DNA of 35,366 bases. It comes from an uncultured Lachnospiraceae bacterium. Its GTDB lineage: Bacteria; Bacillota; Clostridia; Lachnospirales; Lachnospiraceae. Below, one piece after another: positions 9,906 through 29,169 of the stretch (positions are counted from its first letter, which is position 1; every line of letters begins with the position of its first letter). Both the position numbers and the translations under genes were made by a program. The stretch spans positions 1 to 35,366 of the forward strand of contig ONEJ01000022.1 in assembly GCA_900316805.1 (NCBI GenBank). The letters run 5' to 3'. Below the pieces are notes generated by a model. The model had not been told where the DNA came from, made no database searches, and saw nothing but the letters and a program-made list of their open reading frames with translations.

Positions 9906-11069
9906 CTACCGCAGTCTCGTGCGGATATCTGATAAGCGGTCCAACGCTGCCGTCAGAGTAGCATCCTGTTTTGCGAAATGAACCCGCACCAGATGTCTCA
10001 CATCCTCTTTAAAAAAGCTGAAGCCCGGTACAGCCGCTACTCCCACCCTTTTCGCCATATCAATGCAAAACTGCTCGTCATCCTCATATCCAAATTCACT
10101 GATATCCATGAGAACGTAGTAAGCCCCCTGGGGTCTAGTAAAGTTCAGTCCGATCTGCTCCAAGCCTCCCAGAAACAGATCTCTCTTATGGGTATAGGTT
10201 TCCTGCAGTTTCTCATAGTAGGAATCCTCAAACTGTAGTCCCACATTTGCTGCCTCCATAAGAGGAGCCGCCGCCCCCACAGTCAGAAAATCATGGACTT
10301 TTTTCACCCGGTCAATAATTTCCGGCGACGCGATCACGTAGCCCAGACGCCAGCCCGTAACGGAATAGGTCTTGGACAGGGAATTACAGATGATGGTCCG
10401 CTCCTTCATGCCGGGCAGTGCGGAAATATACTGGTGCTGGCTGGGTGCATACACAATGTGCTCATAGACCTCATCGGTAATCACGTAAATGTCATATTTT
10501 ATGGCAAGATCCGATATGATCTGCAGTTCCTCTTTGGTAAACACTTTACCGCAGGGATTGGATGGGTTGCAGAGAATCAGTGCCTTAACTTCTTCCTGTT
10601 TTATAGCAGCTTCCAGCTGATCTGCATCAAAATCAAAGGCCGGCGGCACAAGAGGTACATAAATTGGCTCCGCCCCGCTTAAGATTGCATCTGCTCCGTA
10701 ATTTTCATAAAAAGGCGAAAACACCACCACCTTATCTCCCGGATTGCACACAGACAGCATCGCTGCCATCATGGCCTCCGTGCTGCCGCAGGTCACTACG
10801 ATCTCACTAGCCGGATCCACCGACACCCCTGAAAAATGCTCCTGCTTTCTGGCCAGTGCCTCTCTGAAATTCGCAGCACCAAAGGTCACGGCATACTGAT
10901 GTGGTCCCTCTTTCGCCACCTGAGCCAGCCGGTTCATAATCTCTTCCGGCGGATTAAAATCAGGAAAGCCCTGAGATAAATTGATTGCATCATATTTCAA
11001 TGCAACTCTTGTCATCCTACGAATCACGGAATCGGTGAAGGTTGCTGTGCGGTTACTTAATTTTTTCAT
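9906..11069 (-). CDS. Class I/II PLP-dependent aminotransferase
   Basis: A 387-residue fold-type I aminotransferase. The N-terminal INLSQGFPDFNPP motif is typical of the kynurenine/glutamine aminotransferase-like (PatA/YbdL-like) branch. The PLP site shows D199 in ITDEVYEH and the Schiff-base lysine K233 in NSLSKTYSVTGWRLGY; the substrate-carboxylate arginine is expected in the C-terminal RHLVRVHF. It would convert an amino acid and a 2-oxoacid; the specific donor cannot be read. It lies at the end of the catabolic cluster, separated from the next aminotransferase by a 94-base gap holding a perfect palindrome, so it may have its own control. Confidence 0.88.
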   Translation of the reverse strand: MKKLSNRTATFTDSVIRRMTRVALKYDAINLSQGFPDFNPPEEIMNRLAQVAKEGPHQYAVTFGAANFREALARKQEHFSGVSVDPASEIVVTCGSTEAMMAAMLSVCNPGDKVVVFSPFYENYGADAILSGAEPIYVPLVPPAFDFDADQLEAAIKQEEVKALILCNPSNPCGKVFTKEELQIISDLAIKYDIYVITDEVYEHIVYAPSQHQYISALPGMKERTIICNSLSKTYSVTGWRLGYVIASPEIIDRVKKVHDFLTVGAAAPLMEAANVGLQFEDSYYEKLQETYTHKRDLFLGGLEQIGLNFTRPQGAYYVLMDISEFGYEDDEQFCIDMAKRVGVAAVPGFSFFKEDVRHLVRVHFAKQDATLTAALDRLSDIRTRLR

Positions 11070-11097
11070 TTATAAATTCATCCTTTCCAAAAAATAA

Positions 11098-11130
11098 CAG
11101 AATTGTTATACTCATAGTATAACAATTCTG
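11098..11130. promoter_or_regulatory. Perfect 14-bp inverted repeat, operator or terminator
   Basis: The arms CAGAATTGTTATAC and GTATAACAATTCTG are exact complements across the 5-base spacer TCATA. It lies 29 bases upstream of the aminotransferase at 9906 and 32 bases after the stop of the one at 11163. In the minus-strand transcript it is followed by a T-rich run, so a weak terminator is possible. Its AT-rich perfect symmetry equally fits a dimeric repressor site. Confidence 0.6.
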
Positions 11131-11162
11131 CTAATAAAAGACAAATATAGATGTTTTCTTTC

Positions 11163-12350
11163 TTAAGCACCTGACACAAAAGTATTAATTCTGGTAAGCC
11201 CTTCCTCAAGCCTCTCATAACTACAGGTATACGCGATTCGTATCACAGTGTGACACCCCTGCCCCATGCTGTCTGCCGGAACCACCGCCACATGATACTT
11301 TTCTAACAATTGTTCAGAAAACTCTTTGCCATTCATACCAGTCTCAGAAACATCCACCAGAATGTAAAACGCTCCATCCGGTACGCAGAATCCCAGTTTC
11401 CCTGTCTCTGCAAGTTTTTGCACAACCAGATTTCTGCGCTTTTCGAACTGCTGCACCATACGCTCCGCTTCCTTTTGCGTTTCAGGAAGCTCAAGTGCAT
11501 CTGCAATTCCATACTGCAGAAATGTCGGTGAACATGTACTGCAATAGGTATGGAACTTAATGATTGCCTGAACAAACCTTTCATCCGCTGCGATATACCC
11601 AATTCGCCATCCTGTCATGGCGTATGTTTTGGAAAATCCGCTGATCAAAATCAAACGTTCCTTCATATCTGGGAATTCAGCAATTGAACAGGCCTTTTTC
11701 CCATCATAAACAATATCTGCATATATCTCATCAGAGATAACCAGCATATTCTTCTCTCTGATAAAGCGGCATAATTCTTCCAGCCTGTCCTTTTCGAATA
11801 CCACACCGGTAGGATTGCCGGGATTATTGATGACAATCCCTTTGGTCTTATCCGTGACTGCCCTTTTGATATCCTCCATATTAATCTGATAATGCTCTTC
11901 TTTTCTAAGAGGCACCTCCACAAACTTTGCCCCGGACATTTTGATCAGATTTTCGTATGTAATAAATGCCGGTGTCAGAACAATCACCTCATCTCCCGCT
12001 CCAAACAAAGATAAAATGGTATTGTTCAAAGCCTCTGCGGCTCCCGTAGTCACAAGGATTTCATTCTCACTGTTGTAGCTGCAGCCTGTTTTTCTCCTGA
12101 TACGCTCTGCAACAGCGTCTCTTAGTTCCCTGACACCATAGGCAGAAGCATAATGGGTTTTATTTTCCTGCAAAGCCCGGATTGTGGCATCCTTAATGGG
12201 CTGCGGTGTATCAAAGTCAGGTTCTCCTGCGCTGAATGAAATCACGTCATCGTACTGCTGCTTCATTGCCGCAGCCCGGTCCATAAAATCACGAATTGGA
12301 GATTCCTTCGCAGGTGCCAGTAAAGCAGACTCTTCATATATCCGGTTCAT
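11163..12350 (-). CDS. Class I/II aminotransferase (aspartate aminotransferase-like)
   Basis: A 395-residue fold-type I enzyme with the aspartate aminotransferase Ib-like motifs ISFSAGEPDFDTP, NNPGNPTG, D207 in ISDEIYADIVY and PLP lysine K241 in SGFSKTYAMTGWRIGY; a C-terminal VIRIAYTCS carries the likely substrate-carboxylate Arg. It transfers an amino group between an amino acid and a 2-oxoacid. The start is ATG at 12348-12350, seven bases after GAGGAG; a longer frame would run into the upstream gene. It begins one base after the class III aminotransferase stop, firmly in the catabolic operon. It shares only general fold with the enzyme at 9906, so the two are not recent duplicates. Confidence 0.88.
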   Translation of the reverse strand: MNRIYEESALLAPAKESPIRDFMDRAAAMKQQYDDVISFSAGEPDFDTPQPIKDATIRALQENKTHYASAYGVRELRDAVAERIRRKTGCSYNSENEILVTTGAAEALNNTILSLFGAGDEVIVLTPAFITYENLIKMSGAKFVEVPLRKEEHYQINMEDIKRAVTDKTKGIVINNPGNPTGVVFEKDRLEELCRFIREKNMLVISDEIYADIVYDGKKACSIAEFPDMKERLILISGFSKTYAMTGWRIGYIAADERFVQAIIKFHTYCSTCSPTFLQYGIADALELPETQKEAERMVQQFEKRRNLVVQKLAETGKLGFCVPDGAFYILVDVSETGMNGKEFSEQLLEKYHVAVVPADSMGQGCHTVIRIAYTCSYERLEEGLTRINTFVSGA

Positions 12351-12351
12351 A

Positions 12352-13617
12352 CTAATGCTCCTCTCCGGCCAGCACCTCAATCATACTCTTTTCCAATATC
12401 TCAAAGAGCTCATCACAGTATTCCTTTGTACATAATAAGCCGGGAATAAACTGTAAAACATATTCATCAAATCTTGCATTGATGGCCCATACACCGTTTC
12501 TCGCCAATGCCTGCATCATCTTTTTGCCACCATCGGGAACATGGAATGAGAGACCAATGATCAATCCTTTCTGTGTATAATTGGTCAAAAATTCCGGATA
12601 CTTCTTATGCAGTTCTTCAAATTTACCTGCCATATAAGAGGAAAGCATTTCCACATTAGCAACGGTACTGTCCCTCAGGGTAATATCAAGGACTTTTCCT
12701 GCGACTGCACATCCCAGCTCTGAACCGCCAAAGGTAGATGTGTGCAAACGTCCGATCTCTGTTACCCACTTACCGGCTTCCCTGGTCATAATGGTTGCTG
12801 CTACCGGATACATACCTCCCGATAATCCCTTACCACATACGATCACATCCGGGTTCACCCCTTCACTGCTAATTGCCCACAACTGTCCTGAACGCATCAT
12901 TCCGGTCTGTGTCTCATCTGCAATGTACATGGTTCCGTATTTTTCACATAATTCCTTTACCTTCTTCAAATAGCCCGGTGCCGGAATCTTAAATCCGTAT
13001 GTTGCTGGAACCGTCTCAATGATAACACCGGCAACATCTTCATTCTTTAACACATTCTCCATCGCCTCAACATCATCCATGGGAACCTGGAGAAAATCTG
13101 CGTTATCCTGCCCGCACAAAAAGGGATCTTTGAAAAATGGATCTCCTGTATTAAGCGCAAGACCGGTATGTCCATGATAACATTTTTCAAGGGACACAAT
13201 TTTTCTGCGCTTGGTAGCATAACGGACGGATTTGATAGAGACATCAACAGCCTCACCTCCGCAGCTGGAAAAAATCGCATACTGCATACCCGGAGTAGAA
13301 GCTTTTACAAGTTTCTCTGCCAGATAACCACGTGTCACGGAACCAAAATGATGATTTCCAATATCAAACTCCTCGGAAGCCTCCAGCAAACGCTCCCTGA
13401 CCTCCTTATTTCTGTGTCCCAGATTAAAGGTACCGCCATTCAAATGCAGGTTCATATACCGTTTTCCGTCAACATCCCAGAAATAATAGCCCTCTCTTTT
13501 TCCAATCATGATGGGGATATCCTCATCATACCAATACTGGGTTCTGCTGGGATTCCAATAGGTCAGACATCTCTCCTTTGATTTCTCTTTGCTGTATTCT
13601 TCATTATCCAAAAACAT
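12352..13617 (-). CDS. Class III PLP-dependent aminotransferase or phospho-lyase
   Basis: A 421-residue class III enzyme of the ornithine/4-aminobutyrate aminotransferase type. Seen: YFWDVDGKRYMNL near the N-terminus, NLGHRNKEV, the SSCGGEAVD phosphate loop, KCYHGHTG, D234 in IADETQTGMMRSG and PLP lysine K263 in VCGKGLSGGMYP, then LHTSTFGGSELGC. Members transaminate omega-amines or amino acids; some eliminate phosphate from phosphorylated amino alcohols (ethanolamine phosphate and 5-phosphohydroxylysine phospho-lyases). The kinase gene at 16359 in the same operon makes the latter worth considering, but residues that would decide it are not known to me. GGAGGA lies 8 bases before the ATG at 13615-13617, and the upstream stop is one base away. 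Confidence 0.85.
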   Translation of the reverse strand: MFLDNEEYSKEKSKERCLTYWNPSRTQYWYDEDIPIMIGKREGYYFWDVDGKRYMNLHLNGGTFNLGHRNKEVRERLLEASEEFDIGNHHFGSVTRGYLAEKLVKASTPGMQYAIFSSCGGEAVDVSIKSVRYATKRRKIVSLEKCYHGHTGLALNTGDPFFKDPFLCGQDNADFLQVPMDDVEAMENVLKNEDVAGVIIETVPATYGFKIPAPGYLKKVKELCEKYGTMYIADETQTGMMRSGQLWAISSEGVNPDVIVCGKGLSGGMYPVAATIMTREAGKWVTEIGRLHTSTFGGSELGCAVAGKVLDITLRDSTVANVEMLSSYMAGKFEELHKKYPEFLTNYTQKGLIIGLSFHVPDGGKKMMQALARNGVWAINARFDEYVLQFIPGLLCTKEYCDELFEILEKSMIEVLAGEEH

Positions 13618-13618
13618 G

Positions 13619-15190
13619 TTATGCTTCCTCCTTTGCATCATATACACATTGTCCATTTACATAGGTTTTCAAAACTTTGGTATCCTTAATTTCCCTGCCC
13701 GGGATGTGGAAAATATCTCTGTCTATCACAATAAAATCTGCAAGTTTCCCCGGTTCCAGTGTTCCTTTGATATCCTCCTCATAGGATGAGTAGGCGGCAT
13801 TTTTTGTATACATACACACTGCATCATACACAGACAGGCGCTCCTTGGGCTGCCAGCCGCCTTCCGGCAGTTCATTTCCGTCCTGGCGCATTACTACAGA
13901 ATAAATGCCCCAGAAAGGATCCACCGGTTCTACCGGTGCATCAGAGCTTGCCGTCAGCATGATTCCGTTTTTCCTCAGGGTATTCCACGCATAGGACAGT
14001 TTCAGCCGGTCTTCTCCCAGGCGGTCAATAGACCACCAGATGTTGGTGTTGGATGTATAGCCCGGCTGAATGTCCACGATCATTGGCAGCTTCTTAATTC
14101 TTTCAATCAGATCCGGCCGCATAACCGTGCCATGTATCAGACGAAATCTCACATCCGGCTTGGGATTCTCCCGGTAACAGGTCTCCATGGCATCAACTGC
14201 AATTTCGATTCCTTTGTCACCAATGGCGTGAATTCCCACCTGCAGATCCTGTTCATAGGCCTGTCTGCATAGTTCTGTGATACTTTCTTTCGAATAATTC
14301 AGAATCCCACATTCCCCAGGTGCATCCGAATAGGGTTCTGACAAAGCAGCATCTCTTGTCCCCAGGGAACCATCTGAATATATTTTGAAAAAACCATATT
14401 TCAGAAAATCATTTCCGAATCCGGTCTTCATACAAAAGGAAGGAAATTCATCAAAATTAAGATAAACCCTTACCGGAAGGCGGTTTTCCTCATATAATTC
14501 CTGATACAGATTGGTATATTCCATTGCTCCCACAAATTTTCCCTGTATGGGATGAATGCCGGTAATTCCAAAAGAAGACATCTGCTTTAATGCCCGGAAC
14601 AACACTTCCTTTTTGCTGTCCTTATCCGGACATTTCTCTGGAATCAGTTTTAATACCTGCTCCATCCTGGTCTCTCTGACTACGCCGTCTGGACAGTCTG
14701 TGATCCCCGCAAGCTCCAGAGCTTTGGAATTTACAACACAGATATGCATACAGTATCTGGTAATTATAATCGGTTGTTCACTGCTCACTTCATCCAGATC
14801 TTTTACCGAAGGCAGTTTTTTATCCGGAAATTTCTGCTCATCAAAGCCAAAGCCCAGCAGCCAGTCCCCGTTACCCAATTGATTTTTACTTTTGGTAATT
14901 CTAAGTTCTTCCTTTATCTGCCCGATATTGGTACACTTTTTCAGATCAGCCTCTAAAAGCTTTTCCGCATAATGAAAGGTATGCTGATGGCAGTCAATCA
15001 TTCCCGGCAGTACAATCCGCCCCTGAAGATCAACCTGTTCTTTTGCATGAATACTTTTAATTTCATCATCAGATCCCACTGCAATAATTTTACCGTCACG
15101 TACAGAAAAGGCAGTTTTAAACTCATTTTCATGGGTCATCTGATAAACAATACCATTAAAATAATTTACATCTGCTTCATAAATTTTCAT
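13619..15190 (-). CDS. Amidohydrolase family 3 (YtcJ-like)
   Basis: A 523-residue metal-dependent hydrolase of the YtcJ / N-substituted formamide deformylase type. Seen: VLPGMIDCHQHTFHYAE (about residues 64-80) with the HxH metal ligands, GLHAIGD-like VGIHAIGDKGIE with another His near residue 323, FRLIHGT with the next His, the ASSDAPVEPVDPFWGIYSV motif with the metal-binding Asp, and the C-terminal GKLADFIVIDRDIF. It hydrolyses an amide or formamide bond; the substrate is unknown. The start is not secure: ATG at 15188-15190 has only weak GGTAG upstream, and a GTG at 15200-15202 overlapping the previous gene is possible. It sits between the alcohol dehydrogenase and the class III enzyme in the operon. 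Confidence 0.85.
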   Translation of the reverse strand: MKIYEADVNYFNGIVYQMTHENEFKTAFSVRDGKIIAVGSDDEIKSIHAKEQVDLQGRIVLPGMIDCHQHTFHYAEKLLEADLKKCTNIGQIKEELRITKSKNQLGNGDWLLGFGFDEQKFPDKKLPSVKDLDEVSSEQPIIITRYCMHICVVNSKALELAGITDCPDGVVRETRMEQVLKLIPEKCPDKDSKKEVLFRALKQMSSFGITGIHPIQGKFVGAMEYTNLYQELYEENRLPVRVYLNFDEFPSFCMKTGFGNDFLKYGFFKIYSDGSLGTRDAALSEPYSDAPGECGILNYSKESITELCRQAYEQDLQVGIHAIGDKGIEIAVDAMETCYRENPKPDVRFRLIHGTVMRPDLIERIKKLPMIVDIQPGYTSNTNIWWSIDRLGEDRLKLSYAWNTLRKNGIMLTASSDAPVEPVDPFWGIYSVVMRQDGNELPEGGWQPKERLSVYDAVCMYTKNAAYSSYEEDIKGTLEPGKLADFIVIDRDIFHIPGREIKDTKVLKTYVNGQCVYDAKEEA

Positions 15191-15195
15191 TTTAT

Positions 15196-16344
15196 CTACC
15201 ACGCTTTATCTAAGATATATTTCACTTTATCTTCCGTTAGCGGAACAGGATTACAGTCCAGCAGACGATATGCCATGGTTTCCCTGACAATCCGCGGCAC
15301 CATCTCTTCCGTTAGTCCCAGCTGCCCAAGCCCTTTCTCCATTTCATAATCCTTCAGCCACTGCTTTACGATTGTTACTGCATCCTCGGCTGCCTCTGCG
15401 CCATGGCGTGTACTCCCAAGAAGCTTTCCAATTTCTGCATATCTCTCCGGGCATCCCGGAATATTCATCTCCATGACATGGGGAAGCAGCAAGGCATTTG
15501 CCAGTCCATGGGGAATCGGCAAGAGACCTCCCACAGCTTGGGAAATTCCATGCACCGCCCCTAAGCCTCCATTAGCAAAGGCAGCTGCAGCCATCATGCT
15601 GGCGATTTCCATGTTCCTTCGGGCTTCCAGCTGATCCGGATTCTGTGCAGCAACGGGAAGATTATGTGCGATCAGCGTGATGGCCTCCTTTGCGTACATA
15701 TCACTGAAAGGATTGGCGCGTTTAGAAGTGTAAGCTTCAATGGCATGGGTCAATGCATCCATCCCGGTTGATACCGTCACCGAAAAAGGCATCTCACGGT
15801 GCAGTTTTGTATCTACAATAACCATCTGCGGAATCAGAAGCCGGTTTGTAACCGAAAGTTTTACCTGTCTTGCCTCATCTTCTATGACGGCGGCAGCTGT
15901 AACCTCACTGCCGCTTCCTGCTGTCGTTGGAATTGCAATCACAGGTACCGGTGGATTTTCAACACTTTTGCTCCCACCAAATAAATACTCTCTGATGCCT
16001 CCCTCATTTGTTGCCAGCATTGCTGCCGCCTTCGCCTGATCAATAATACTGCCGCCACCGATTGCCATTACAATGTCACAGGCCTCTTCACGAACAGCCT
16101 CCGCAAGGGCATCTACGCCTTCCACCGTGGGCTCCGCCTGCGGGCTGATATATGTCCTGCAAACAATCTGCTTCGACGCAAGGGTCTCCATAATCTCCAC
16201 AAAATAAGGTATTTTCGATACATGCCTTCCTGTAATAACAAAAATCCTTTTTCCCTTAAGTTCCCTGCAGCAATCTGCAACAATCTCTACCGTATCTGCC
16301 CCACAATAGATTCTGCCCGGCGGCTGAAATACATAACTGCTCAT
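15196..16344 (-). CDS. Iron-containing alcohol dehydrogenase
   Basis: A 382-residue group III NAD(P)-dependent alcohol dehydrogenase. Seen: the nucleotide-binding GGGSIIDQAKAAA, IPTTAGSGSEVT, TGMDALTHAIEAYTS with a metal-ligand His, and the second signature GLGAVHGISQAVGG through IPHGLANALLLPHV with two more His ligands. It interconverts an alcohol and an aldehyde or ketone. In this operon it could act on the aldehyde left after amine removal. Tandem ATGs open the frame; the second (16342-16344) is 6 bases from GGGAGG and is preferred over the first, only 3 bases away. It follows the kinase gene by 14 bases. Confidence 0.88.
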   Translation of the reverse strand: MSSYVFQPPGRIYCGADTVEIVADCCRELKGKRIFVITGRHVSKIPYFVEIMETLASKQIVCRTYISPQAEPTVEGVDALAEAVREEACDIVMAIGGGSIIDQAKAAAMLATNEGGIREYLFGGSKSVENPPVPVIAIPTTAGSGSEVTAAAVIEDEARQVKLSVTNRLLIPQMVIVDTKLHREMPFSVTVSTGMDALTHAIEAYTSKRANPFSDMYAKEAITLIAHNLPVAAQNPDQLEARRNMEIASMMAAAAFANGGLGAVHGISQAVGGLLPIPHGLANALLLPHVMEMNIPGCPERYAEIGKLLGSTRHGAEAAEDAVTIVKQWLKDYEMEKGLGQLGLTEEMVPRIVRETMAYRLLDCNPVPLTEDKVKYILDKAW

Positions 16345-16358
16345 CATGAACCTCCCTG

Positions 16359-17336
16359 CTAAAAATCTGTTCCATCACTTTCCACATACCGCTTTGCCAT
16401 CCGATATGTCTGTTCATAATAATTGTCAGTAACCTTCTTTACCGTATCATTCTCCATATGGGAGGCAATCCATCCGATTCTCACGATTTTTCTCATCACA
16501 ATGAAAGTAGGTACCATGGATCTGTCTGTTTCCGTAAGCTTTCGCTCTGTCTCATAGCCCTTTAACCATGCTGCCATTTTATCCCGGATTCCCTCATCAT
16601 ACTCCAGCACCGAAGTACTGAGATCGTACAAAAACCAACCGAATCCGCAATCGTCAAAATCCAACACCTGCACCTTTCCCTGATCCACCAAAACATTGTT
16701 GATATTAAAATCCGAATGGATCAGACCATAGTTTTCCGGGGTCTTTCCATACTGCTTTAATTTGTCCCCGATGATCTGCTCTGCTTTCTCATAGACACTT
16801 CGCTCCTCTTCCGACAGCCGGGGGTGTTTCCTCCAATCGCCTACACGGGCATCTTTGCCCAGCAGATCTTCATAATTCCAGGTAAATCTTACAATATTTT
16901 TTACTCCGGGCCATTCCTGCACCTGTCGGTGAAGCTTGGCAGTAATCTGACCGATTTCCTGCAGATATCCAAGGAGTTCTTCCCCTTCTATTCCCCGGAG
17001 GGTTGTCCCGTTCAAGAAGGAAAACATGGTACAGTAGTATTCTTTTATCTGGGTCAAAAGCTCTCCCCGGTGGTTCTTTATTACAACCGGCATCCGGATA
17101 TCCGTGCTTTTCTCCAATTCCTGAATCCACAGCAGTTCGCCCATTAATTCCTCTGTCGTATGATATCCGGGTCTGCATAGCCGCAGTACATATTTTTTGC
17201 TGCCGGTCTGTACCAGCCAATTATAATTCTCCGAGTATTTCAAAAGAGAAATTTCACAGGCAGAACCCAGATCATAATGTTTGCCCAGTTCTTCCTCCAG
17301 CATATGCTTTAATTCTTCATCTTTCCGTTCGTTCAT
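16359..17336 (-). CDS. APH/choline kinase-family small-molecule kinase
   Basis: A 325-residue protein with the aminoglycoside phosphotransferase fold. N-terminal strands include KYVLRLCRP with the likely ATP-binding Lys/Arg. The catalytic loop is HSDFNINN (H207, D209, N214) and the metal-binding motif is LDFDDCG (D226, D228). The family covers homoserine, choline, methylthioribose and hydroxylysine kinases. In a catabolic operon with an amino acid transporter, an antibiotic role is unlikely; phosphorylating a hydroxyl on the imported compound or an intermediate fits better, but this is inference. The ribosome binding site is weak (GAAGAC region), and the gene starts 20 bases after the dehydrogenase stop. 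Confidence 0.8.
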   Translation of the reverse strand: MNERKDEELKHMLEEELGKHYDLGSACEISLLKYSENYNWLVQTGSKKYVLRLCRPGYHTTEELMGELLWIQELEKSTDIRMPVVIKNHRGELLTQIKEYYCTMFSFLNGTTLRGIEGEELLGYLQEIGQITAKLHRQVQEWPGVKNIVRFTWNYEDLLGKDARVGDWRKHPRLSEEERSVYEKAEQIIGDKLKQYGKTPENYGLIHSDFNINNVLVDQGKVQVLDFDDCGFGWFLYDLSTSVLEYDEGIRDKMAAWLKGYETERKLTETDRSMVPTFIVMRKIVRIGWIASHMENDTVKKVTDNYYEQTYRMAKRYVESDGTDF

Positions 17337-17356
17337 AAGCAGTCTTCATTCTTTCG

Positions 17357-18343
17357 TTATTTCGTTATCTCGTTTTCGGAGTATCCCTTTAAGGCATAGG
17401 AAATCACATTCTGCATGGTCAGCTCGTTTAAAGATTTCATTGCCAGATCCGTGTAAAAGGCAATATGGCTCGTATAAATCACATCATCTCTGCCACACAG
17501 CTCCCAGAAAATTTTGTCCTGGTAATCCGGGTTCTTTGTCCGTATGTAGTCATCTTCTTTCTCATATACGTCAAATCCATATCCGGATAATTTTCCGCCC
17601 TTAAGTGCTGCCAGTACGGCCTCCGAATCTACCAGTCCGCCTCTTGCCGTATTCACAAGAATGGCACCGGTCTTCATCTGGCCTATACTTTCCTCATTGA
17701 TCAAGTGGTAGTTTTCTTTCTTTAATGGACAATGAAGCAAAAGGATATCACTCTCTTTTAACAAAGTGTCCTGATCCGTAAAGGTTACCAGATCATTCAC
17801 TTCTTTCTTCTCATGGGGTGTTGACACCAGAATTCTGCACTGGAAACCACTGAGCATTCGAATGGTGGAAATTGCTATCTTTCCGCAGCCAATAATTCCT
17901 ACTGTCAGGGCGGAGAGTTCCTTTCCCATTACGTTTTCTAATGTGAAATTTCCTCTGTCCGTATTCTTCATACTGTACTTCAGCTTTCGCAGCAGGGCAA
18001 GCAGCAGTAACACCGTATGTTCACTTACCGCTCCTGTGGAATACACAGGTACATTTGCTGCGCATATTCCATTGTCCCGCAATGCCTGAACAGACAAGTG
18101 ATCGGTTCCGGTAGATCTGGTCACAATGTATTTCACACCACATTCAGCCAGTGCCCTGGCTTCTTTTTCCCGGACAATACTGTTGGTAATAAGCCAGATA
18201 ATTTCATATCCCCGGGTGGAGGAAACCGTATCCATATTTAATACGCCCTCCGCAAAATCCACCTGTTCAAGTCCATGTGTACACAGATATGTTCTTATCT
18301 CATCCCGTTCCGCCGGTTCTGTACCGAATATCAGAATTTTCAT
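17357..18343 (-). CDS. D-2-hydroxyacid dehydrogenase (LdhA/VanH-like)
   Basis: A 328-residue NAD-dependent enzyme. The N-terminal substrate domain includes RSTGTDHLSVQA and NVPVYSTGAVSEHTVLLLLALLRK, strongly like D-lactate dehydrogenase. The Rossmann motif is VGIIGCGKIA (148-157) and the catalytic triad is R234 (NTARGG), E261 (DVYEKE) and H293 (SHIAFYT). It reduces a 2-oxoacid to the D-2-hydroxyacid, so with a class I aminotransferase it could run a reductive branch that disposes of NADH. AGGAGA lies 7 bases before the ATG. Which 2-oxoacid is used cannot be told. Confidence 0.9.
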   Translation of the reverse strand: MKILIFGTEPAERDEIRTYLCTHGLEQVDFAEGVLNMDTVSSTRGYEIIWLITNSIVREKEARALAECGVKYIVTRSTGTDHLSVQALRDNGICAANVPVYSTGAVSEHTVLLLLALLRKLKYSMKNTDRGNFTLENVMGKELSALTVGIIGCGKIAISTIRMLSGFQCRILVSTPHEKKEVNDLVTFTDQDTLLKESDILLLHCPLKKENYHLINEESIGQMKTGAILVNTARGGLVDSEAVLAALKGGKLSGYGFDVYEKEDDYIRTKNPDYQDKIFWELCGRDDVIYTSHIAFYTDLAMKSLNELTMQNVISYALKGYSENEITK

Positions 18344-18361
18344 TCATCTCTCTCCTGTTTC

Positions 18362-18868
18362 TTATAGAGAATCCTCAAGTTTTTTCACCTCTGGTTTTGG
18401 CAGACGATAAATCGTCCAGTCTGACATAGGAATTGCTCCGAGACCTTTATAGAATTTAATCGACGGCTCATTCCAGTCCAGACAGAACCACTCCATTCTT
18501 CCACAGTCATGTTCATTTGCAATTTTCGCAAGGCATGCAAAAGTCGCTTTACCCAATCCTTTTCCCCGTACTTCCGGGTCATAGAAAACATCCTCCACAT
18601 AGAGATTGGATTTGCCGAGGAACGTAGAGAAACTGTAGTAATATAAAGCAAAGCCCACCGGCTTTCCATCCAGTTCCCCGATCAGGCACTCACAATAATG
18701 TTTCACAAAAACGGAATCATAGATATCTTCTTCCGTAGCTACAACTGCATCCAGCATTTTCTCATAGGTTGCAATCTTCTTAATGAATTCCAGAATTAAT
18801 CCGGCATCCTTCTCTTCTGCTTTTCTCAACTGAAAGCCTTCGATCTTTGTCTCATAATATGTACTCAT
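18362..18868 (-). CDS. GNAT acetyltransferase, diamine acetyltransferase (SSAT)-like
   Basis: A 168-residue GNAT-fold enzyme. The acetyl-CoA loop appears as EVRGKGLGKA (about residues 93-102), preceded by YVEDVFYDP and followed by DWNEPSIKFYKGLGA. These motifs and the N-terminal FIKKIATYEKM resemble eukaryotic spermidine/spermine N1-acetyltransferase. It probably acetylates a primary amine of a polyamine or side chain. The start is ATG at 18866-18868, seven bases after TAGGAGT; a GTG three codons earlier lacks that spacing. It lies 11 bases after the ABC ATPase stop, so it is expressed with the transporter. Confidence 0.85.
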   Translation of the reverse strand: MSTYYETKIEGFQLRKAEEKDAGLILEFIKKIATYEKMLDAVVATEEDIYDSVFVKHYCECLIGELDGKPVGFALYYYSFSTFLGKSNLYVEDVFYDPEVRGKGLGKATFACLAKIANEHDCGRMEWFCLDWNEPSIKFYKGLGAIPMSDWTIYRLPKPEVKKLEDSL

Positions 18869-18879
18869 AATTCGCACTC

Positions 18880-19629
18880 CTAACCTGCCATAAATCTTGA
18901 TAAAAATTCTCTTGTATAACTGCTTCTTGGGTTGTAAAAAATCTGCTCAGGAGGTCCCTGCTCTACCACAGCTCCCTCTTTCATATATATGGTTTTTGTT
19001 GATACATCCCGTGCGAAGGCCATTTCGTGGGTCACAATCACCATTGTAGTTCCTTCCTGGGCAAGTTCCTTCATAACCTTTAAGACTTCTCCTACCATCT
19101 GGGGATCCAGCGCACTGGTAGGTTCATCGAATAAAATCACTTCCGGGCTCATACATAACGCTCTCGCTATGGCTACCCTCTGCTTCTGTCCACCGGAAAG
19201 CTGATGAGGCATGGCATTTACCTGAGGCAGCATATTTACCTTTTCCAGATATGTACGTGCGGTCTGTTCCGATTCTTCCTTTGACTTTTTCAATACATGC
19301 TGCATGCCAAAAGTACAATTTTCCAGCACGGTCATATTGTTAAAAAGATTAAATGTCTGAAAAACCATACCCATTTTAGCCCTGAATTTCTCTACCTTGG
19401 AATTGTATTCCGTGATTTCCTTATCATGAAAAAAGATTTTTCCTCCGGTAGGTGTTTCCAGCATATTTAAGCAGCGAAGAAGGGTGGTTTTTCCGGATCC
19501 CGAGGATCCGATAATACAAGTCACATCCCCCTTTTTCACGGTAAAATTTACATCCTTTAACACTTCATGCTTTCCAAAGCTTTTTTTCAGTTCCCTGACA
19601 GTAATAATTGTTTCTCTTTCTTTTTCCAC
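18880..19629 (-). CDS. Polar amino acid ABC transporter, ATP-binding protein
   Basis: A 249-residue ATPase of the GlnQ/HisP type. Walker A GSSGSGKTT (41-49), Q-loop QTFNLFNNMTVLEN (91-104), signature LSGGQ (144-148), Walker B VILFDEP (164-170) and switch His in IVTHEM are all intact. It powers uptake through the permease encoded 2 bases upstream (stop at 19632). The family moves amino acids or amino acid-like cations and anions. Confidence 0.95.
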   Translation of the reverse strand: MEKERETIITVRELKKSFGKHEVLKDVNFTVKKGDVTCIIGSSGSGKTTLLRCLNMLETPTGGKIFFHDKEITEYNSKVEKFRAKMGMVFQTFNLFNNMTVLENCTFGMQHVLKKSKEESEQTARTYLEKVNMLPQVNAMPHQLSGGQKQRVAIARALCMSPEVILFDEPTSALDPQMVGEVLKVMKELAQEGTTMVIVTHEMAFARDVSTKTIYMKEGAVVEQGPPEQIFYNPRSSYTREFLSRFMAG

Positions 19630-19631
19630 AG

Positions 19632-20402
19632 CTACTCCTCCTGTTTCGCCACCGGCTCTAATTGATAATTACTGTTTCCATCCATCTTTTTCTCAACCTT
19701 GCGAATGATCTTGGACACTACAATTGTCATGATCAGGTAAATAACGGCTACAATAAAGAAGGATTCAAAATACTTATAATAAACGGAAGCCGCCGTTTTT
19801 CCCGCAAAGAACAGTTCAGATACTGAAATCACATTTAAAACAGAGGTATCCTTGATATTAATAACTAACTGGTTTCCAACCTGTGGCATAATATTTCGGA
19901 GAGCCTGCGGCATTACGATATATCTCATAATGCCAAAATGCTTCAGTCCAATGGCTTTGCCTGCCTCAACCTGACCTACATCTACGGAATCAATTCCACC
20001 ACGTACTGACTCTGCCATGTAGGCTCCTGTATTGATAGACACCACCAGGAAGCCACAAGGAATTGCATCAATGGTAATCCCAAGCATCGGAAGTCCGTAA
20101 AAAATAACCATGGCCTGTACCATCATAGGCGTTCCACGAAATACCTCAACATATACGGTTGAAATCACTTTCAACAGCCATACGGTTATCTTCTTAAAAT
20201 AGGAATCCGTGCTGATCACTTCAATTGTCTGAATAAATCCGCAAAGAAAACCCAGTATACAGCCAACCAATGTGCCAGCAACCGCCAGCAGTATGGTCCA
20301 GCCACAGCCTTTTAATAAAATCAAACCATATTCTTCAATTAAAAAGCCAACCCAGTCCCAAAATGTACCACCTGTTGGCACTGTTGCTAAAATACAATCC
20401 AT
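19632..20402 (-). CDS. Polar amino acid ABC transporter, permease
   Basis: A 256-residue permease of the HisM/GlnP family with about five membrane segments. The cytoplasmic loop that docks the ATPase is VEAGKAIGLKHFGIMRYIVMPQAL, the classic EAA motif, near residues 155-180. The start is ATG at 20400-20402, since GGGAGG lies 6 bases upstream; a longer in-frame start adds seven residues without a site. With one permease gene the transporter is probably a homodimer. Confidence 0.93.
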   Translation of the reverse strand: MDCILATVPTGGTFWDWVGFLIEEYGLILLKGCGWTILLAVAGTLVGCILGFLCGFIQTIEVISTDSYFKKITVWLLKVISTVYVEVFRGTPMMVQAMVIFYGLPMLGITIDAIPCGFLVVSINTGAYMAESVRGGIDSVDVGQVEAGKAIGLKHFGIMRYIVMPQALRNIMPQVGNQLVINIKDTSVLNVISVSELFFAGKTAASVYYKYFESFFIVAVIYLIMTIVVSKIIRKVEKKMDGNSNYQLEPVAKQEE

Positions 20403-20438
20403 AACGTGACCTCCCAGTCCCAAACTCCAATGTCTTCT

Positions 20439-21302
20439 TTAGTTTTCTGCTGGCTGGTTGCTGATTGCCTCATCCATCCAGGCCGCTCTCGTTGACTCGT
20501 CAATTTCCTTTAACTTACTGTTCATAGCATCCAGTCGTTCTGAATCACCTTTTCGAACTGCAATGGAAATAGAGGTAATGGAATCATCCACATCGTATCC
20601 TTCTTCAAAATCCAGCAATTTCAAATCCGGATTTGTGGCAACCGCTGCCAGACCCATAGGCTTTTCAACAATCGTTGCATCGATTCTTCCGGATGTAAGA
20701 GCCACAACCACACTTGACATATCCGGAAGAGCCTCCTCGATCTTTGCTCCCGGAATCTGAGATAAGGTGTCGTACATTTTTGTTCCCTGCTGTGAGGAAA
20801 CAACTGCGCCATCCAGATCCTCCTTAGAAGCTGCATCTGCATACTTTCCGTCTGCTTTAACCAATGTCAGATACTCGGCTGTATAATAAGGATCCGTAAA
20901 ATCGACACTTTCCTTTCTTTCCTCCGTTGGAGACATACCTGCAATGATGGCATCAATTTTGTCGGACTGCAGTGCCATGATCAAGCCGTTCCATTCGATT
21001 TTGTATACCTCTAATTTACAGCCCATGCTCTCCGCAATTGCCTTTGCCATTGTAATGTCATAACCATTGACATATTCATTTGTTCCCTCCACCTTAACAG
21101 CACCATTGCTGTCATCTGTCTGGGACCAGTTATATGGTGGGTTTCCACACTCCATACCCACTCGAAGTACTTTTTCTTCTGTCTTTGCTTCTGTGGAAGT
21201 TTTCTCATCACTTACGGCAGTAGTACTCTTTCCACATCCTGCCACTCCCATTACCACAATCATTGCAGCCAGCAGTACACTCAGTAATCGTCTCTTCTTC
21301 AT
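20439..21302 (-). CDS. Amino acid ABC transporter, substrate-binding lipoprotein
   Basis: A 287-residue SBP_bac_3 family protein. A basic N-terminus and hydrophobic stretch end in the lipobox VAGC (20-23), so C23 is lipid-anchored. After a Thr/Lys/Glu-rich linker come LRVGMECGNPPYNW, NGYDITMAKAIAESMG, IDAIIAGMSPTEERKESVDFTDPYY (with the substrate-carboxylate Arg) and VVSSQQGTKMYD, the usual polar amino acid binding motifs. It captures the substrate outside the membrane. It is the first gene of the operon, with a 126-base structured leader and a consensus promoter controlled by the divergent GntR regulator. Confidence 0.93.
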   Translation of the reverse strand: MKKRRLLSVLLAAMIVVMGVAGCGKSTTAVSDEKTSTEAKTEEKVLRVGMECGNPPYNWSQTDDSNGAVKVEGTNEYVNGYDITMAKAIAESMGCKLEVYKIEWNGLIMALQSDKIDAIIAGMSPTEERKESVDFTDPYYTAEYLTLVKADGKYADAASKEDLDGAVVSSQQGTKMYDTLSQIPGAKIEEALPDMSSVVVALTSGRIDATIVEKPMGLAAVATNPDLKLLDFEEGYDVDDSITSISIAVRKGDSERLDAMNSKLKEIDESTRAAWMDEAISNQPAEN

Positions 21303-21370
21303 AGTCTTGTTCCTCCTTTAGATAAGTATATAAGAAATAGCAGCCAAACACAGCTTCGGATCCAAATACA

Positions 21371-21407
21371 AAAGGCGCCAACGAGACTTCATCTCATTGA
21401 CGCCTTT
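21371..21407 (-). promoter_or_regulatory. Long leader hairpin, possible attenuator
   Basis: In the minus-strand transcript 21392-21407 pairs with 21371-21386 over 16 positions with two G-U pairs and a 5-base loop. In the opposite strand the same two positions would be A-C mismatches, so the structure is built for the transporter transcript. The 3' side runs into CCTTTTGTATTTGG, only a weak T-tract. It begins about 20 bases after the expected start point. Confidence 0.6.
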
Positions 21408-21417
21408 GTCCGACCTT
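21407..21417 (-). promoter_or_regulatory. Imperfect FadR-like operator at the transporter promoter
   Basis: The minus strand reads AGGTCGGACAA, matching the GGTC-N-GAC core of the perfect site at 21610-21622. It lies just downstream of the expected start of the transporter transcript, the same relative place as the other site in the regulator promoter. Confidence 0.45.
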
Positions 21418-21434
21418 CTGTATTTGTTAGCGTT

Positions 21435-21463
21435 ATTATATGCCCGCATATGGAAACTGTCAA
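21435..21463 (-). promoter_or_regulatory. Promoter of the ABC transporter and catabolic operon
   Basis: On the minus strand perfect TTGACA (21458-21463) and TATAAT (21435-21440) boxes are separated by 17 bases. The start point near 21428 gives a leader of about 125 bases. Such a perfect promoter on a catabolic operon suggests tight repression. Confidence 0.85.
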
Positions 21464-21640: not shown

Positions 21641-22312
21641 ATGAAAACACTATTATATGATAAGATTGCCCAAGATTTAGAAGACAAAATCCGTTCCGGT
21701 TTTTTCCCTGAGAATACGAAACTCCCCTCCGAACGAGACCTCTCGAATGAATATCAGGTAAGCCGTACCGTGATCCGTGAAGCCCTGAAGTTACTTATTG
21801 AGAAGAATCTTGTATCCAATCATCCGGGGAAAGGCAACTATGTCTGCCATCCATGTGAAGACAGTCTGGGGAACCACTTTGAATCCTTTCTGGACTTTAA
21901 AGGGATTCCTCTCTCCGATTTGATTGACGCCAGAGAGGAACTGGAGATTATCATCGGAAAAAGAGCAATCCAGCATGTATCCTGTAAACCATTAAAAGAA
22001 CTGGAACGCCTTTATGAAGATATGGAGGCTAGCATGAATGACAGTGTTCTCTACAATGAATATGATTATCAGTTTCATTTAAAGCTTGCGGACTGCTCCC
22101 AGAATGAAACCCTGAAAATCCTTTTTTTATCTTTTTACTCTATTACCGGTAAAAATATATTTTCATCCGTCACCAATAAATTTGAAACCCGAAAGCATGC
22201 ACAATTAGAACACTATCATATGCTCTGCGCCCTTAAAACCCGCTCTCCGAGAAATATGACAAAGGCCATACAGGAGCACATGAACTGCATCCGGGAGCAT
22301 ATCCAGACATGA
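21641..22312 (+). CDS. GntR-family regulator, FadR subfamily
   Basis: A 223-residue protein with an N-terminal winged HTH (residues about 8-70: KLPSERDLSNEYQVSRTVIREAL, then the wing HPGKGNYVC) and a C-terminal FCD ligand domain (about 84-210) with the expected D in DAREELE and His residues in YQFHLKLAD and EHYHML, which commonly bind a metal. It is divergent from the transporter operon and surrounded by FadR-like sites, so it most likely represses both itself and the operon until the imported compound or a metabolite binds. AAAGGAG lies 9 bases before the ATG. Confidence 0.92.
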   Translation: MKTLLYDKIAQDLEDKIRSGFFPENTKLPSERDLSNEYQVSRTVIREALKLLIEKNLVSNHPGKGNYVCHPCEDSLGNHFESFLDFKGIPLSDLIDAREELEIIIGKRAIQHVSCKPLKELERLYEDMEASMNDSVLYNEYDYQFHLKLADCSQNETLKILFLSFYSITGKNIFSSVTNKFETRKHAQLEHYHMLCALKTRSPRNMTKAIQEHMNCIREHIQT

Positions 22313-23572: not shown

Positions 23573-26500
23573 TTATTGCGTTACCTTCACCTTCATTGTT
23601 ACAGTCTTTGTCTTTTCGTTCATTAAAGTAACTTTTGCCTTGATGACAGCGGTTCCTGCATTCTTAGCAGTTACCTTACCACTTGCGCTTACTGTTGCAA
23701 CGTTCTTCTTGCTGGTAGAATAGGTAATTTTCTTTACATTATCCATATCCAGCTTACTGCTCATCTGAACCGCAATTTTCTTTCCCTTCTCAACGGTGGC
23801 AGAAGTCTTCTTAACCTTAACGGTTGAAAGAACTGCCTTCTCAATTTTAGCTGCTTTTTTGGTGTCCATCAACTGATAGACTGCGCCCTCCTGCAGTGTC
23901 ACTTTGACATTTCCTGCATCACTTACTGTATAAGTCTTGGCATTTACCAGAACATACTCACCTGTCTTCTCATCAATTGACATAACCTTCAGCTTTTTAC
24001 CTGCGGTAATATCCTTGGTATCTGCCTTAACCGTGTACTCTTTCTCACCTGCAGCAACGGCCATTTCAACATTAACAGATTTCGTTTCTGCTGCCTCTGT
24101 AATCTGGGCAATTACAGAACCTGAAAGCGTTGCCTTTACACCGGACTTAGTGCCTGCCCCCTTCTTAGCAACTTTTGCCTGAGCGCTTATGATTTTACCT
24201 TCTGGATTCTTCTCTACGTTGACTGTAGCTGATGCACTTCCTGCAACTTTTTCAATGACAGAGGTCTCTGTAATTCCGGTAACTTTCCCCTTAGCATCCT
24301 TCACGGTAGTAATGGTAACCGCAACCGCTTTGCCCTTGGTATTTGTCTCGGTCTCTTTCTGAGTCTTCGTAGAAGAACCGTCTGCATTGGTAACCGTCTC
24401 CGTTGTCTTTACAGAACCATCCTTTGCAGTCTCAACAACCATCTCTGTCCTGGTTCCGTCCGTCTTCATCTCTACCGCTGTCTCAACCTTGGTTCCGTCC
24501 GCTTTGGTCTCCGTGCTGGTCTCTACCTTGGTTCCGTCCGGCTTGATTTCAGTTGTTGTGCTGCCTGTTGAGCCGCCGGTGGAGCCACCTGTTGGGCCTC
24601 CTGTTGAACCTTCGGATGGAGCGGTTGGAGTTGTATACTGGGTTAAAATATATGTTCCTGCTACTGCATTCGCATCCGTCACTGCTTCCAGGTTTGTTGT
24701 TCCTTCCGGAAGATATGCACGTACCGGATAAGTACCCGCAATGGCAGGTCTTGCCTTCACCCACTGCTTTGTTGTCTGACCCTTTTCGGATACTTCTACC
24801 TGATATTCAATTACTACAGCTGCTGTTGCATCTTCCGGGCTAATTGTTGCTTTCACACCGGATGGTGCCTGCGTTGTTTCACTTAAGTTCGATAATGTAA
24901 TGTTTGGTGCCGCTTTTGAAATTGTAAATTCTTTCGTAGCTGTTCCGGTATAATTGCCGGTACCGGTGATTGTTAAGGTGTAGGTTCCTGCATCCTTCTT
25001 CTCATTACCGGAAACCTTATAATCCGTAGATGGGGTTAATACCGTATCACCAATCTTAACACTGCTGACCGTCTGAGTCTGAGCAGCTCCATTGTAGGTC
25101 AGGCTTGTTCCCAGTGTAATCTCTGCATTCTCTATACTACTCTTTTGGATAGGTGTCTTTACAATCGTATATTTTGAGAATTTTCCTGTACTAAATGAAA
25201 TTGCACCATTTTCTACAGTCGGAGGCAAAATGTCCTCCTGTCCATTGTGTTCACGAATTACGGTATAGTTATAATGCGTAGTATCAGCATTCTCAAACGG
25301 AAGCGTTACTGTGGCATAAGCATTTTCTCCTAAGTCCGTCAAAGGAGTGTCCCAGCTTCCTCTGTCTCCTCCCTTGCTTACTACATTCTTAAGTGTAATG
25401 TCATAAGCAGCAAGAGCCTCTGAGCCAGAAGAAATATTACTACTTGCATCTACATTATCAACCTTCATCTCCAAAGTACCGCTTGCAGCTTCATAATTTG
25501 TAGATTCAATCTTTGCAGAAGAAGCAACATCTGCATTGCCTGTTACCTTGTTGTCCACTTTTTCAAATTTTACCTCGAAATGGACATTGCCACCTTGCTT
25601 TACCTTAAATTCGAATGAACTAACCGCCTCTGCAGCAGTAAAATCGTTTAATAGAGAATCCGTCTCGTTTTCGTTCGTATAGATATTGGTAAGCTGATAT
25701 CCAAAATCCGGAATAAATTTAAAGTCAATGGATACCCCTGATACGTCTGGTCTGATAAAGATATCTCCATCACTTCCACCAATTCCATATTTCATCAAAG
25801 GATCTTCATAACCAGATTCAGGATTATTCTCTTCTTCTTCTGTTTTTTGACGGAAGATAGTATCTTCCATGGAATAGATCTTATCTTCCTCGCTAGCATT
25901 ATACTCGCTTGCAATTGAAGAATAAGTGATATCTCCAATATGAACACGTTCTGCATATACCTTACCATTCTTGGTTGTTAAGTTTGCAGAATTGCCATAG
26001 GACACAGTATACCAAGGGGCATCTCCTCCTCCGCCCCCTTCTGCAGGTTGTTGATTTGTCACCCATCTACTCGATGTCATATCCCAATTAAACTCAACCG
26101 GTCCATCTCCATGATTTGAAAAGTCATTGTTGTTATCACCAGAAATCTTTTGATCTTGGTAATATAACGCTATTCCATTGGAAAACGCACCGCCTGCAAA
26201 GACAAGTTTTGATGACGCTGATGTTCCAACAATTGATGCACTGTCTTTTACTGCCAACTGATGATCAATTCGTAAGGAACAACCATCAATAGTAAGAATC
26301 CCTGCATTTACAGTCACATCATTCATAGTTAAGTCGCTGGAAATTGTGGTGTCTGCGTCATAGGTAACATCATGATCACCTGCCCCAGGTCCCGACTCAG
26401 ACCCCCTGAAACGAGCCTCTATGTGAACACAACCATATCTCTGGTTACCATTCTCATCTGTATCCGCCACTTTCGTATTATCCGGCTCCCAGCGATAAGC

Positions 26501-27895: not shown

Positions 27896-27943
27896 CGACG
27901 ATGGTTTTTCCTCATCATACCCCGTGGAATATGTAACTTCAAT

Positions 27944-28228
27944 CTACGACATATCTACGCTTTGATATGTTGTACTTTCTCCCTCGTTTGTAACAGAAAC
28001 TAATACAACTCCGGTATCGTCCGGGAGATTGCAATATAATCTGTCACAAAGACGATTCATCGATTTATCGTTCCAATCCCATTCTGCAAAATAAAGCCCT
28101 GCTTCGACACTGCCTTCCTCGGCCTTTACTGCAGTTACCGGCATCAAACCTACAACCATTACAAATGTAAGCATATACGCCAGTATTCGTTTCAATATCC
28201 TTGAATCTTTGTGTCGTTTTTTCTCCAT
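27944..28228 (-). pseudogene. N-terminal part of the large surface protein, ended by in-frame TAG
   Basis: A 94-residue product with a clear signal peptide: basic MEKKRHKDSRILKR, a hydrophobic core AYMLTFVMVVGLMPVTA, and likely cleavage after VKA (about residue 35). It ends at TAG 27944-27946. The frame is the same as that of the 1440-codon protein downstream (distance between starts 333 bases, 111 codons) and continues after the TAG as IEVTYSTGYDEEKPSS with no other stop. The two parts are therefore one gene of about 1550 codons (23573-28228) broken by a single nonsense codon, or read through. AGGAGG lies 6 bases before the ATG; the fibronectin-type gene ends 21 bases upstream, so they form one operon. 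Confidence 0.8.
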
Positions 28229-28249
28229 ACTTTTTCCTCCTGTTTGCCT

Positions 28250-28978: not shown

Positions 28979-29169
28979 AAAAACTACCTCCTTCTTGTCC
29001 ATGCAAAATTTTCTTCCGACAATAAATTCACGAATTTTTGTAATAATTGTCGAATACAGGTCTCAAATATACATTAATTATCATACTTTTAACCTATTCC
29101 GTAAATATAATTGCCACAAATGGCATTTGCTTATTTTGGCAAAAACTATATCCAAAGCGCCATACTTTC

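What the first reader, a model, noticed from the sequence alone, without database searches (positions are those of the whole stretch)
9906..21463. Candidate undescribed catabolic operon: amino acid transporter with kinase, class III PLP enzyme, Fe-ADH, amidohydrolase and D-2-hydroxyacid dehydrogenase
Ten or eleven co-directional genes with 1-36 base gaps (the last aminotransferase after a 94-base gap) link uptake of a polar amino acid-like compound to modification. Established knowledge: APH-fold kinases and class III PLP enzymes cooperate in breakdown of hydroxylysine and ethanolamine phosphate by phosphorylation then elimination, which yields an aldehyde. An Fe-ADH could then act on that aldehyde. 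A hydroxylated amino acid or amine from diet or host (such as 5-hydroxylysine from collagen) is therefore a testable substrate guess. I know of no described pathway with exactly this set.
Basis: partly seen in the sequence, partly recalled or inferred. Interest (0 to 1): 0.72.

Follow-up and report, generated by a model that had tools for sequence, protein, structure and literature searches.

The report
Gut bacterial amino-alcohol breakdown operon
A gut bacterium carries an operon that appears to import an amino-acid-like compound, tag it with phosphate and then split off phosphate and ammonia, using an enzyme that looks like an aminotransferase but probably is not one; the exact food molecule is still a guess.

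Summary
The operon is real. Ten co-directional genes (11163-21302, minus strand) lie behind a full-consensus promoter-like site. The eleventh gene (9906-11069) follows a terminator-like hairpin and is probably separate.

The kinase's closest solved relative is 6ef6 (recalled as a mycobacterial 1-amino-2-propanol kinase). The class III enzyme belongs to a 29-protein clade in which both carboxylate-holding arginines of ornithine-type aminotransferases are replaced (29 of 29). The kinase is present in 22 of 23 close loci. In one relative, an operon with kinase 75% and permease 81% identical to the clade's has a canonical phospholyase in the class III slot. Phosphorylation then PLP-dependent elimination is well supported by inference; no activity was shown.

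The substrate is open. The amino-acid-type binding protein, a thialysine-acetyltransferase-like GNAT and subclade residues point to a lysine-like hydroxyamino acid, with 5-hydroxylysine the best single guess (about 0.3). It is a new variant of a known kind. Whether this clade arose apart from canonical phospholyases is unresolved (AU p 0.34).

The parts
20439..21302 (-). substrate-binding protein, family 3 (polar amino acid type)
   Evidence: PF00497; best NCBIfam TIGR01096 Lys/Arg/Orn-binding, 114.3 bits, below its cut-off of 256.35; Arg and acidic positions kept in 8 of 8 aligned proteins (read by eye)
19632..20423 (-). amino acid ABC permease
   Evidence: PF00528; TIGR01726 over its cut-off
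18880..19629 (-). amino acid ABC ATPase
   Evidence: PF00005; best NCBIfam TcyN, GlnQ, below cut-offs
18362..18877 (-). GNAT N-acetyltransferase, thialysine/diamine acetyltransferase-like
   Evidence: PF00583; best solved relative 12jc thialysine acetyltransferase, E 1.8e-37, next 2fe7, a probable N-acetyltransferase, 5.2e-37
17357..18343 (-). D-2-hydroxyacid (D-lactate type) dehydrogenase
   Evidence: PF02826/PF00389; best solved relatives are D-2-hydroxyacid and D-lactate dehydrogenases, E about 1e-60
16359..17336 (-). APH-fold kinase related to the 6ef6 kinase
   Evidence: PF01636; 6ef6 E 1e-56; HxDxxxxN and DFDD intact
15196..16347 (-). iron-containing alcohol dehydrogenase
   Evidence: PF00465/PF25137
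13619..15202 (-). amidohydrolase family 3 hydrolase
   Evidence: PF07969; only two solved relatives at E 1e-10, both uncharacterised (3igh, 3icj)
12352..13656 (-). class III PLP enzyme, proposed phospho-lyase of a distinct clade
   Evidence: PF00202; H163/Q402 in 29 of 29 clade members; clade support 100/100
11163..12380 (-). class I/II aminotransferase, likely last gene of the transcription unit
   Evidence: PF00155; 60% identical gene at the same place in L024
11095..11133 (-). terminator-like hairpin with T run
   Evidence: 18-pair stem; pattern match only
9906..11069 (-). second class I/II aminotransferase, probably a separate unit
   Evidence: PF00155; lies behind the hairpin
21435..21463 (-). 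sigma-70-type promoter-like site, 12 of 12 consensus positions
   Evidence: pattern match only
21371..21407 (-). leader hairpin between promoter and first gene
   Evidence: 17-pair stem; fold of 21303-21428 z -4.07; a comparable hairpin upstream of the L024 operon, z -3.28
21641..22312 (+). divergent GntR/FCD-family regulator
   Evidence: PF00392 and PF07729; 52% identical gene at the same place in L024
21611..21621 (.). palindrome TGGTCAGACCA, possible regulator site
   Evidence: the only exact match of TGGTCNNACCA in the window, but matches with up to 1 mismatch are not above shuffles (4 against 6.66); resemblance to FadR-type operators is recalled

Best explanation
The operon takes up a carboxylated, amino-acid-like compound through a polar amino acid ABC importer. 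The APH-fold kinase phosphorylates its hydroxyl group. The class III PLP enzyme then removes phosphate and the neighbouring amino group (1,2-elimination), leaving an aldehyde. Fe-ADH reduces the aldehyde. The class I/II aminotransferase and D-2-hydroxyacid dehydrogenase would convert the alpha-amino acid end to a D-2-hydroxy acid, and the GNAT and amidohydrolase would add or remove an N-acyl group. Shown here: gene order, families, kinase/class III co-occurrence, loss of the aminotransferase arginines, and one natural replacement by a canonical phospholyase in a sister branch. Inferred: every reaction and the order of steps. The most likely single substrate is 5-hydroxylysine or a similar lysine-like hydroxyamino acid (about 0.3 by itself); the elimination chemistry is more certain (about 0.7).
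For: Kinase: best solved match 6ef6 (E 1e-56). Pairing: 22 of 23 close class III loci hold the kinase, 1 of 57 distant ones; in 392 genomes of the order all 3 with the class III enzyme are among the 11 with the kinase (hypergeometric 1.7e-5, ignoring relatedness and counting the window genome itself). Not a typical ornithine-type aminotransferase: H163 and Q402 in 29 of 29 clade members, while the second class III enzymes of the same or like loci keep R and R in 7 of 7. Swap: L019 has kinase 75%, APC permease 81%, SDR 73% and PII 69% identical to APC-branch loci but a canonical phospholyase (6tor 3.3e-101, 5g4i 1.3e-93) in place of the clade enzyme, and its kinase nests among theirs (node 100/100). 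H at the first column is also seen in the solved phospholyase 6tor (alignment). Substrate clues: SBP amino-acid positions kept 8 of 8; GNAT closest to thialysine acetyltransferase; kinase position 211 is R in 20 of 20 kinases of the APC branch or paired with canonical phospholyases and in 6ef6, but N/S in the 4 of the window subclade and H in 8 of 8 of the third branch; class III R303 and R395 in 14 of 15 non-APC members (not L045) and in 0 of 14 of the APC branch.
Against: No activity or ligand is shown. Only one locus shows the phospholyase swap (G380), and it lies in the APC branch, not the window's. The kinase is not always paired: of the 11 kinase genomes in the order sample, 3 have the clade enzyme and 1 the canonical phospholyase; the other 7 have neither at E 1e-80 and 1e-60, and no class III gene was matched in the stretches read around them (3 of the 7 only over 3.8 kb). 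In the family sample 6 of 9 kinase genomes have the clade enzyme nearby, 1 the canonical one and 2 (G572, G768) neither. The residue changes are not diagnostic alone: of 57 distant class III relatives 46 carry a residue other than R at the second column and 3 a gap, and 6 carry H at the first. The R303/R395 split may be a single event on the tree. The window and L024 lack the SDR found in 15 of 23 close loci.
Confidence: 0.6

Rival explanations
1. Same chemistry, but the substrate is a simple amino alcohol (1-amino-2-propanol, ethanolamine or aminoacetone-derived), as in the RMM microcompartment pathway.
For: Kinase closest to 6ef6; APC-branch loci carry an APC permease (7 of 11 in the clustering) and SDR, and L040 has EutB and EutC around the pair; the Rhodococcus plasmid locus L003 holds a homologous kinase beside microcompartment genes; passages of PMC4207490 list phosphotransferase, SDR, permease and GntR in RMM1 loci.
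Against: The window has an amino-acid-type binding protein, no SDR in the operon and no EutB in its (82% complete) genome, a thialysine-type GNAT and a different residue at kinase position 211.
Confidence: 0.2
2. The class III enzyme is an ordinary omega-aminotransferase or racemase, and the kinase acts at a different step on another compound.
For: Best solved matches are acetylornithine, putrescine and ornithine aminotransferases; most distant class III relatives also lack R at the switch column; 7 of 11 kinase genomes in the order sample lack a class III partner.
Against: Scores 224.6 against a cut-off of 410.05 for the ArgD family; both arginines replaced in 29 of 29; tight kinase pairing where the clade enzyme occurs; swap with a canonical phospholyase.
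Confidence: 0.15
3. The kinase and GNAT detoxify an antibiotic-like amine and the operon is protective or biosynthetic rather than catabolic.
For: Second-best solved kinase matches are amicoumacin kinases; some weak GNAT matches are antibiotic acetyltransferases.
Against: Amicoumacin kinase matches are far weaker (9e-18 against 1e-56); importer, dehydrogenases and aminotransferase fit uptake and breakdown.
Confidence: 0.05

Closest known systems
RMM (Rhodococcus and Mycobacterium microcompartment) amino-alcohol pathway
   Same: Homologous APH-fold kinase (6ef6; L003), class III PLP enzyme, amine uptake, and a GntR regulator in the published loci (passages)
   Different: No shell proteins or SDR among the 20 window ORFs scanned, ABC importer instead of permease, class III enzyme from a different clade, N instead of R at kinase position 211
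Canonical phospholyases: ethanolamine-phosphate phospho-lyase (6tor), Arthrobacter phospholyase (5g4i; species recalled), human AGXT2L2 acting on phosphohydroxylysine (passage)
   Same: Class III fold, kinase partner, found in the same operon slot in L019; H at the first column shared with 6tor
   Different: Separate clade; Q not K at the switch column; sister relation neither shown nor rejected
[quoted passage not shown]
   Same: A class III lyase annotated as transaminase, found by gene context
   Different: NF049939 score 171 against cut-off 525; no phosphonate genes among the ORFs scanned; PbfA acts without a kinase
Acetylornithine/ornithine aminotransferases
   Same: Best overall sequence similarity
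   Different: Both carboxylate-binding arginines replaced; below the curated cut-offs of the 25 of 69 families shown

Membership tests
Canonical class III phospholyase (ETNPPL/PHYKPL/5g4i) | Closest sequence similarity to 6tor/5g4i | tested here: not met
   Neither is among the 60 shown of 112 solved matches, which run down to E 1.8e-26; the L002 and L019 enzymes match them at E 1.3e-93 to 1.2e-105
Canonical class III phospholyase (ETNPPL/PHYKPL/5g4i) | Lysine at the switch-arginine column (defined here from the references, not from print) | tested here: not met
   Q in 29 of 29 of the clade; K in 6 of 7 reference rows and in 6tor and 5g4i; the seventh, L006a, has H and groups elsewhere in the tree
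Canonical class III phospholyase (ETNPPL/PHYKPL/5g4i) | Paired with a small-molecule kinase | tested here: met
   22 of 23 close loci
Canonical class III phospholyase (ETNPPL/PHYKPL/5g4i) | Releases phosphate and ammonia from a phosphorylated amino alcohol | not testable with these tools
   needs enzyme assay
Acetylornithine/ornithine aminotransferase | Score over curated NCBIfam cut-off | tested here: not met
   TIGR00707 224.6 against 410.05; TIGR01885 180.6 against 378.4
Acetylornithine/ornithine aminotransferase | Arginines for substrate carboxylate and amino-acceptor carboxylate (roles and numbering R180/R413 recalled) | tested here: not met
   H163 and Q402 in 29 of 29
Amino-alcohol kinase (6ef6 family) | Closest solved relative and intact catalytic motifs | tested here: met
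   E 1e-56; motifs
Amino-alcohol kinase (6ef6 family) | R two residues after the catalytic Asp (pattern found here) | tested here: not met
   N211 in the window; R in 20 of 20 APC-branch or phospholyase-paired kinases and in 6ef6
RMM module | Shell proteins and amino-alcohol SDR beside the pair | tested here: not met
   20 window ORFs scanned, none is BMC or SDR; best match to the L041 SDR elsewhere in the genome 43% identical

The most novel reading that the evidence does not exclude
A separate clade of class III PLP enzymes that look like aminotransferases works as a phospho-lyase with its own kinase. In the window's branch the pair has shifted from plain amino alcohols to a lysine-like hydroxyamino acid such as collagen-derived 5-hydroxylysine, giving gut Lachnospiraceae a bacterial kinase/phospholyase route that parallels the animal hydroxylysine pathway by a different enzyme.
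Probability: 0.28. Interest if true: 0.68.

Novelty: new variant of a known kind. Interest (0 to 1): 0.5.

Why it matters
Class III lyases are documented only rarely (ethanolamine-phosphate phospho-lyase, a closely related enzyme and PbfA, according to the passages of PMC8154272 read), so a further clade would correct the annotation of a recurring gut-bacterial gene family. If the substrate is hydroxylysine, it would supply a bacterial gene set for breaking down a collagen-derived amino acid and make that directly testable. In the listings of ten papers searches I saw no paper on this operon, but the held library covers only openly licensed papers and listings were capped.

Tried and rejected
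Rejected: the class III enzyme as ArgD/OAT (cut-offs and residues); the enzyme as a close canonical phospholyase; the last aminotransferase as part of the same unit; a known riboswitch in the leader (no Rfam match there at gathering score; only weak matches far below gathering scores).

Tried without result: own-genome EutB (none); a close SDR in the genome (best 43%); AU test for a separate origin (one clade with canonical phospholyases not rejected, p 0.343); papers searches for a bacterial hydroxylysine kinase or phospholyase. Of papers I saw search listings with starts of abstracts, and read passages only of PMC8154272, PMC4207490, PMC8156839 and PMC9283133. The identity of 6ef6 as the Mycobacterium smegmatis aminopropanol kinase is recalled; the record's molecule name is aminoglycoside phosphotransferase.

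Rows dropped: the class III tree used 12 of 57 distant relatives; the AU test used 40 rows, thinned by hand; the L046 kinase fragment (cut by its contig end) was left out of the kinase tree and residue counts, and the natural kinase-SDR fusion of L026 was cut to its first 350 residues there. L110 was left out of the invariant-residue count. The genome-contig scan kept 80 of 82 relatives. L127 (G410) equals L035 and L017 equals the start of L030, so they were not counted again.

Full report
What is there. The region holds ten tightly packed minus-strand genes: SBP, permease, ATPase, GNAT, D-2-hydroxyacid dehydrogenase, APH-fold kinase, Fe-ADH, amidohydrolase 3, class III PLP enzyme and class I/II aminotransferase. 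A TTGACA-17-TATAAT site lies at 21463-21435 and a 17-pair leader hairpin at 21407-21371 (pattern matches). An eleventh gene (9906-11069) lies behind a terminator-like 18-pair hairpin. A divergent GntR/FCD regulator sits at 21641-22312, with a palindrome TGGTCAGACCA just upstream of it. The genome is 2.25 Mb, 82% complete.

Relatives. A scan of genome contigs with the class III enzyme found 82 relatives, of which 80 loci were kept. Of these, 23 are close (42-83% identity, L024-L046) and 57 distant (24-32%, L047-L103). The nearest, L024 (uncultured Mediterraneibacter), has SBP, permease, ATPase, GNAT, D-2-hydroxyacid dehydrogenase, kinase, amidohydrolase, class III and class I/II aminotransferase in the same order, and a divergent GntR, but no Fe-ADH. 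L126 has Fe-ADH, amidohydrolase (53% identical), kinase and class III enzyme. The system is patchy: 3 of 392 genomes of the order and 3 of 62 of the genus have the class III enzyme at E 1e-80, the window genome counted in both.

Pairing. A kinase profile matches in 22 of 23 close loci (not in L045, which has a DUF6206 protein there) and in 1 of 57 distant loci, weakly (L071, E 3.1e-7). In the 392-genome sample all 3 genomes with the class III enzyme are among the 11 with the kinase. The converse fails: 7 of those 11 have neither the clade enzyme nor a canonical phospholyase at the thresholds used. In both trees the window, L024, one L025 copy and L126 group together, and so does the APC-permease branch; the third branch is one group in the class III tree (100/99) but two in the kinase tree. 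An SDR (UcpA-like) is present in 15 of 23 close loci, in L026 as a natural fusion to the kinase, but not in the window operon or L024.

What the class III enzyme is. Its best solved matches are acetylornithine, putrescine and ornithine aminotransferases, yet it is below the curated cut-offs of the 25 of 69 NCBIfam families shown. At the two columns that hold carboxylates in ornithine-type aminotransferases (roles recalled), all 29 clade members have H and Q. The second class III enzymes in the same or like loci have R and R in 7 of 7; E. coli ArgD, AstC and GabT have R and R, PatA K and R; 6 of 7 phospholyase-type reference rows have K at the second column, as do 6tor and 5g4i, and 6tor also has H at the first (alignments). 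Against over-reading this, 46 of 57 distant relatives have another residue than R at the second column, 3 a gap and 8 R; 6 have H at the first. The clade is one side of a branch with support 100/100; its relation to canonical phospholyases is unresolved (AU p 0.343).

The swap. L019 (G380, same family) carries SDR, kinase, APC permease and PII 69-81% identical to those of APC-branch loci, but its class III slot holds a canonical phospholyase (6tor 3.3e-101, 5g4i 1.3e-93). Its kinase nests inside the APC branch. The genome has no clade enzyme at E 1e-80. A scan with this phospholyase matched 4 of 392 genomes at E 1e-60: G380 itself and three at 32-34% identity whose surroundings I did not read. 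This single swap is the strongest sign that the clade enzyme does the same job; it lies in the sister branch, not the window's.

Substrate. The APC branch looks like simple amino-alcohol breakdown: SDR, APC permease, kinase R211 as in 6ef6, and EutB and EutC on either side of the pair in L040. This resembles the published RMM1 gene list (phosphotransferase, SDR, permease, GntR; passages). The window branch differs: an amino-acid-type ABC importer whose binding protein keeps the Arg and acidic positions in 8 of 8 (their roles are recalled), a GNAT closest to thialysine acetyltransferase (E 1.8e-37), kinase position 211 N in 3 and S in 1 of 4, and class III R303 and R395 (14 of 15 non-APC members, 0 of 14 APC). 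Humans have a class III lyase for phosphohydroxylysine (passage), and the hydroxylysine kinase paper is in that reference list. Together this favours a lysine-like hydroxyamino acid, with 5-hydroxylysine as the best single guess, but no call shows it.

Mechanism proposed. Uptake; phosphorylation of the hydroxyl next to the amine; PLP-dependent 1,2-elimination to an aldehyde with loss of phosphate and ammonia; reduction by Fe-ADH; transamination and D-specific reduction at the alpha-amino acid end. The roles of GNAT and amidohydrolase are the least certain (perhaps N-acylation to stop cyclisation, then removal). All reaction steps are inference.

Verdict. The system is a new variant of a known kind (kinase plus class III lyase), with a distinct lyase clade and probably a different substrate.

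Noticed in passing
window 21371-21407 and L024 3376-3486: A strong hairpin with a T-rich tail sits between promoter and first gene in both the window (fold z -4.07) and L024 (z -3.28), each enclosed by an outer helix; the window stretch has no Rfam match at gathering score. It may be an attenuator.
   Followed up: partly
L026 11266-13083: Natural fusion of the kinase with an SDR in one 605-residue ORF (APH 65-286, SDR 348-593), linking the SDR to the pathway in other branches.
   Followed up: yes
L042 5232-11992: Two sets of kinase, APC permease and SDR genes in tandem behind a single class III gene.
   Followed up: no
L045 11196-12215: In the most distant of the close relatives (Desulfobacteraceae) a DUF6206 protein takes the kinase position beside the class III enzyme; it may be a diverged kinase-like protein.
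   Followed up: no
L040 7100-13083: EutB and EutC (ethanolamine ammonia-lyase) genes flank the class III/kinase pair, with an APC permease upstream. The record is labelled Flavobacteriaceae although the genes group with Clostridia, so it may be a binning error.
   Followed up: partly
window 23573-29002 and 32880-34592: A 1440-residue ORF with a Big_2 domain, a fibronectin type III protein, and further on an IS66-type transposase.
   Followed up: no
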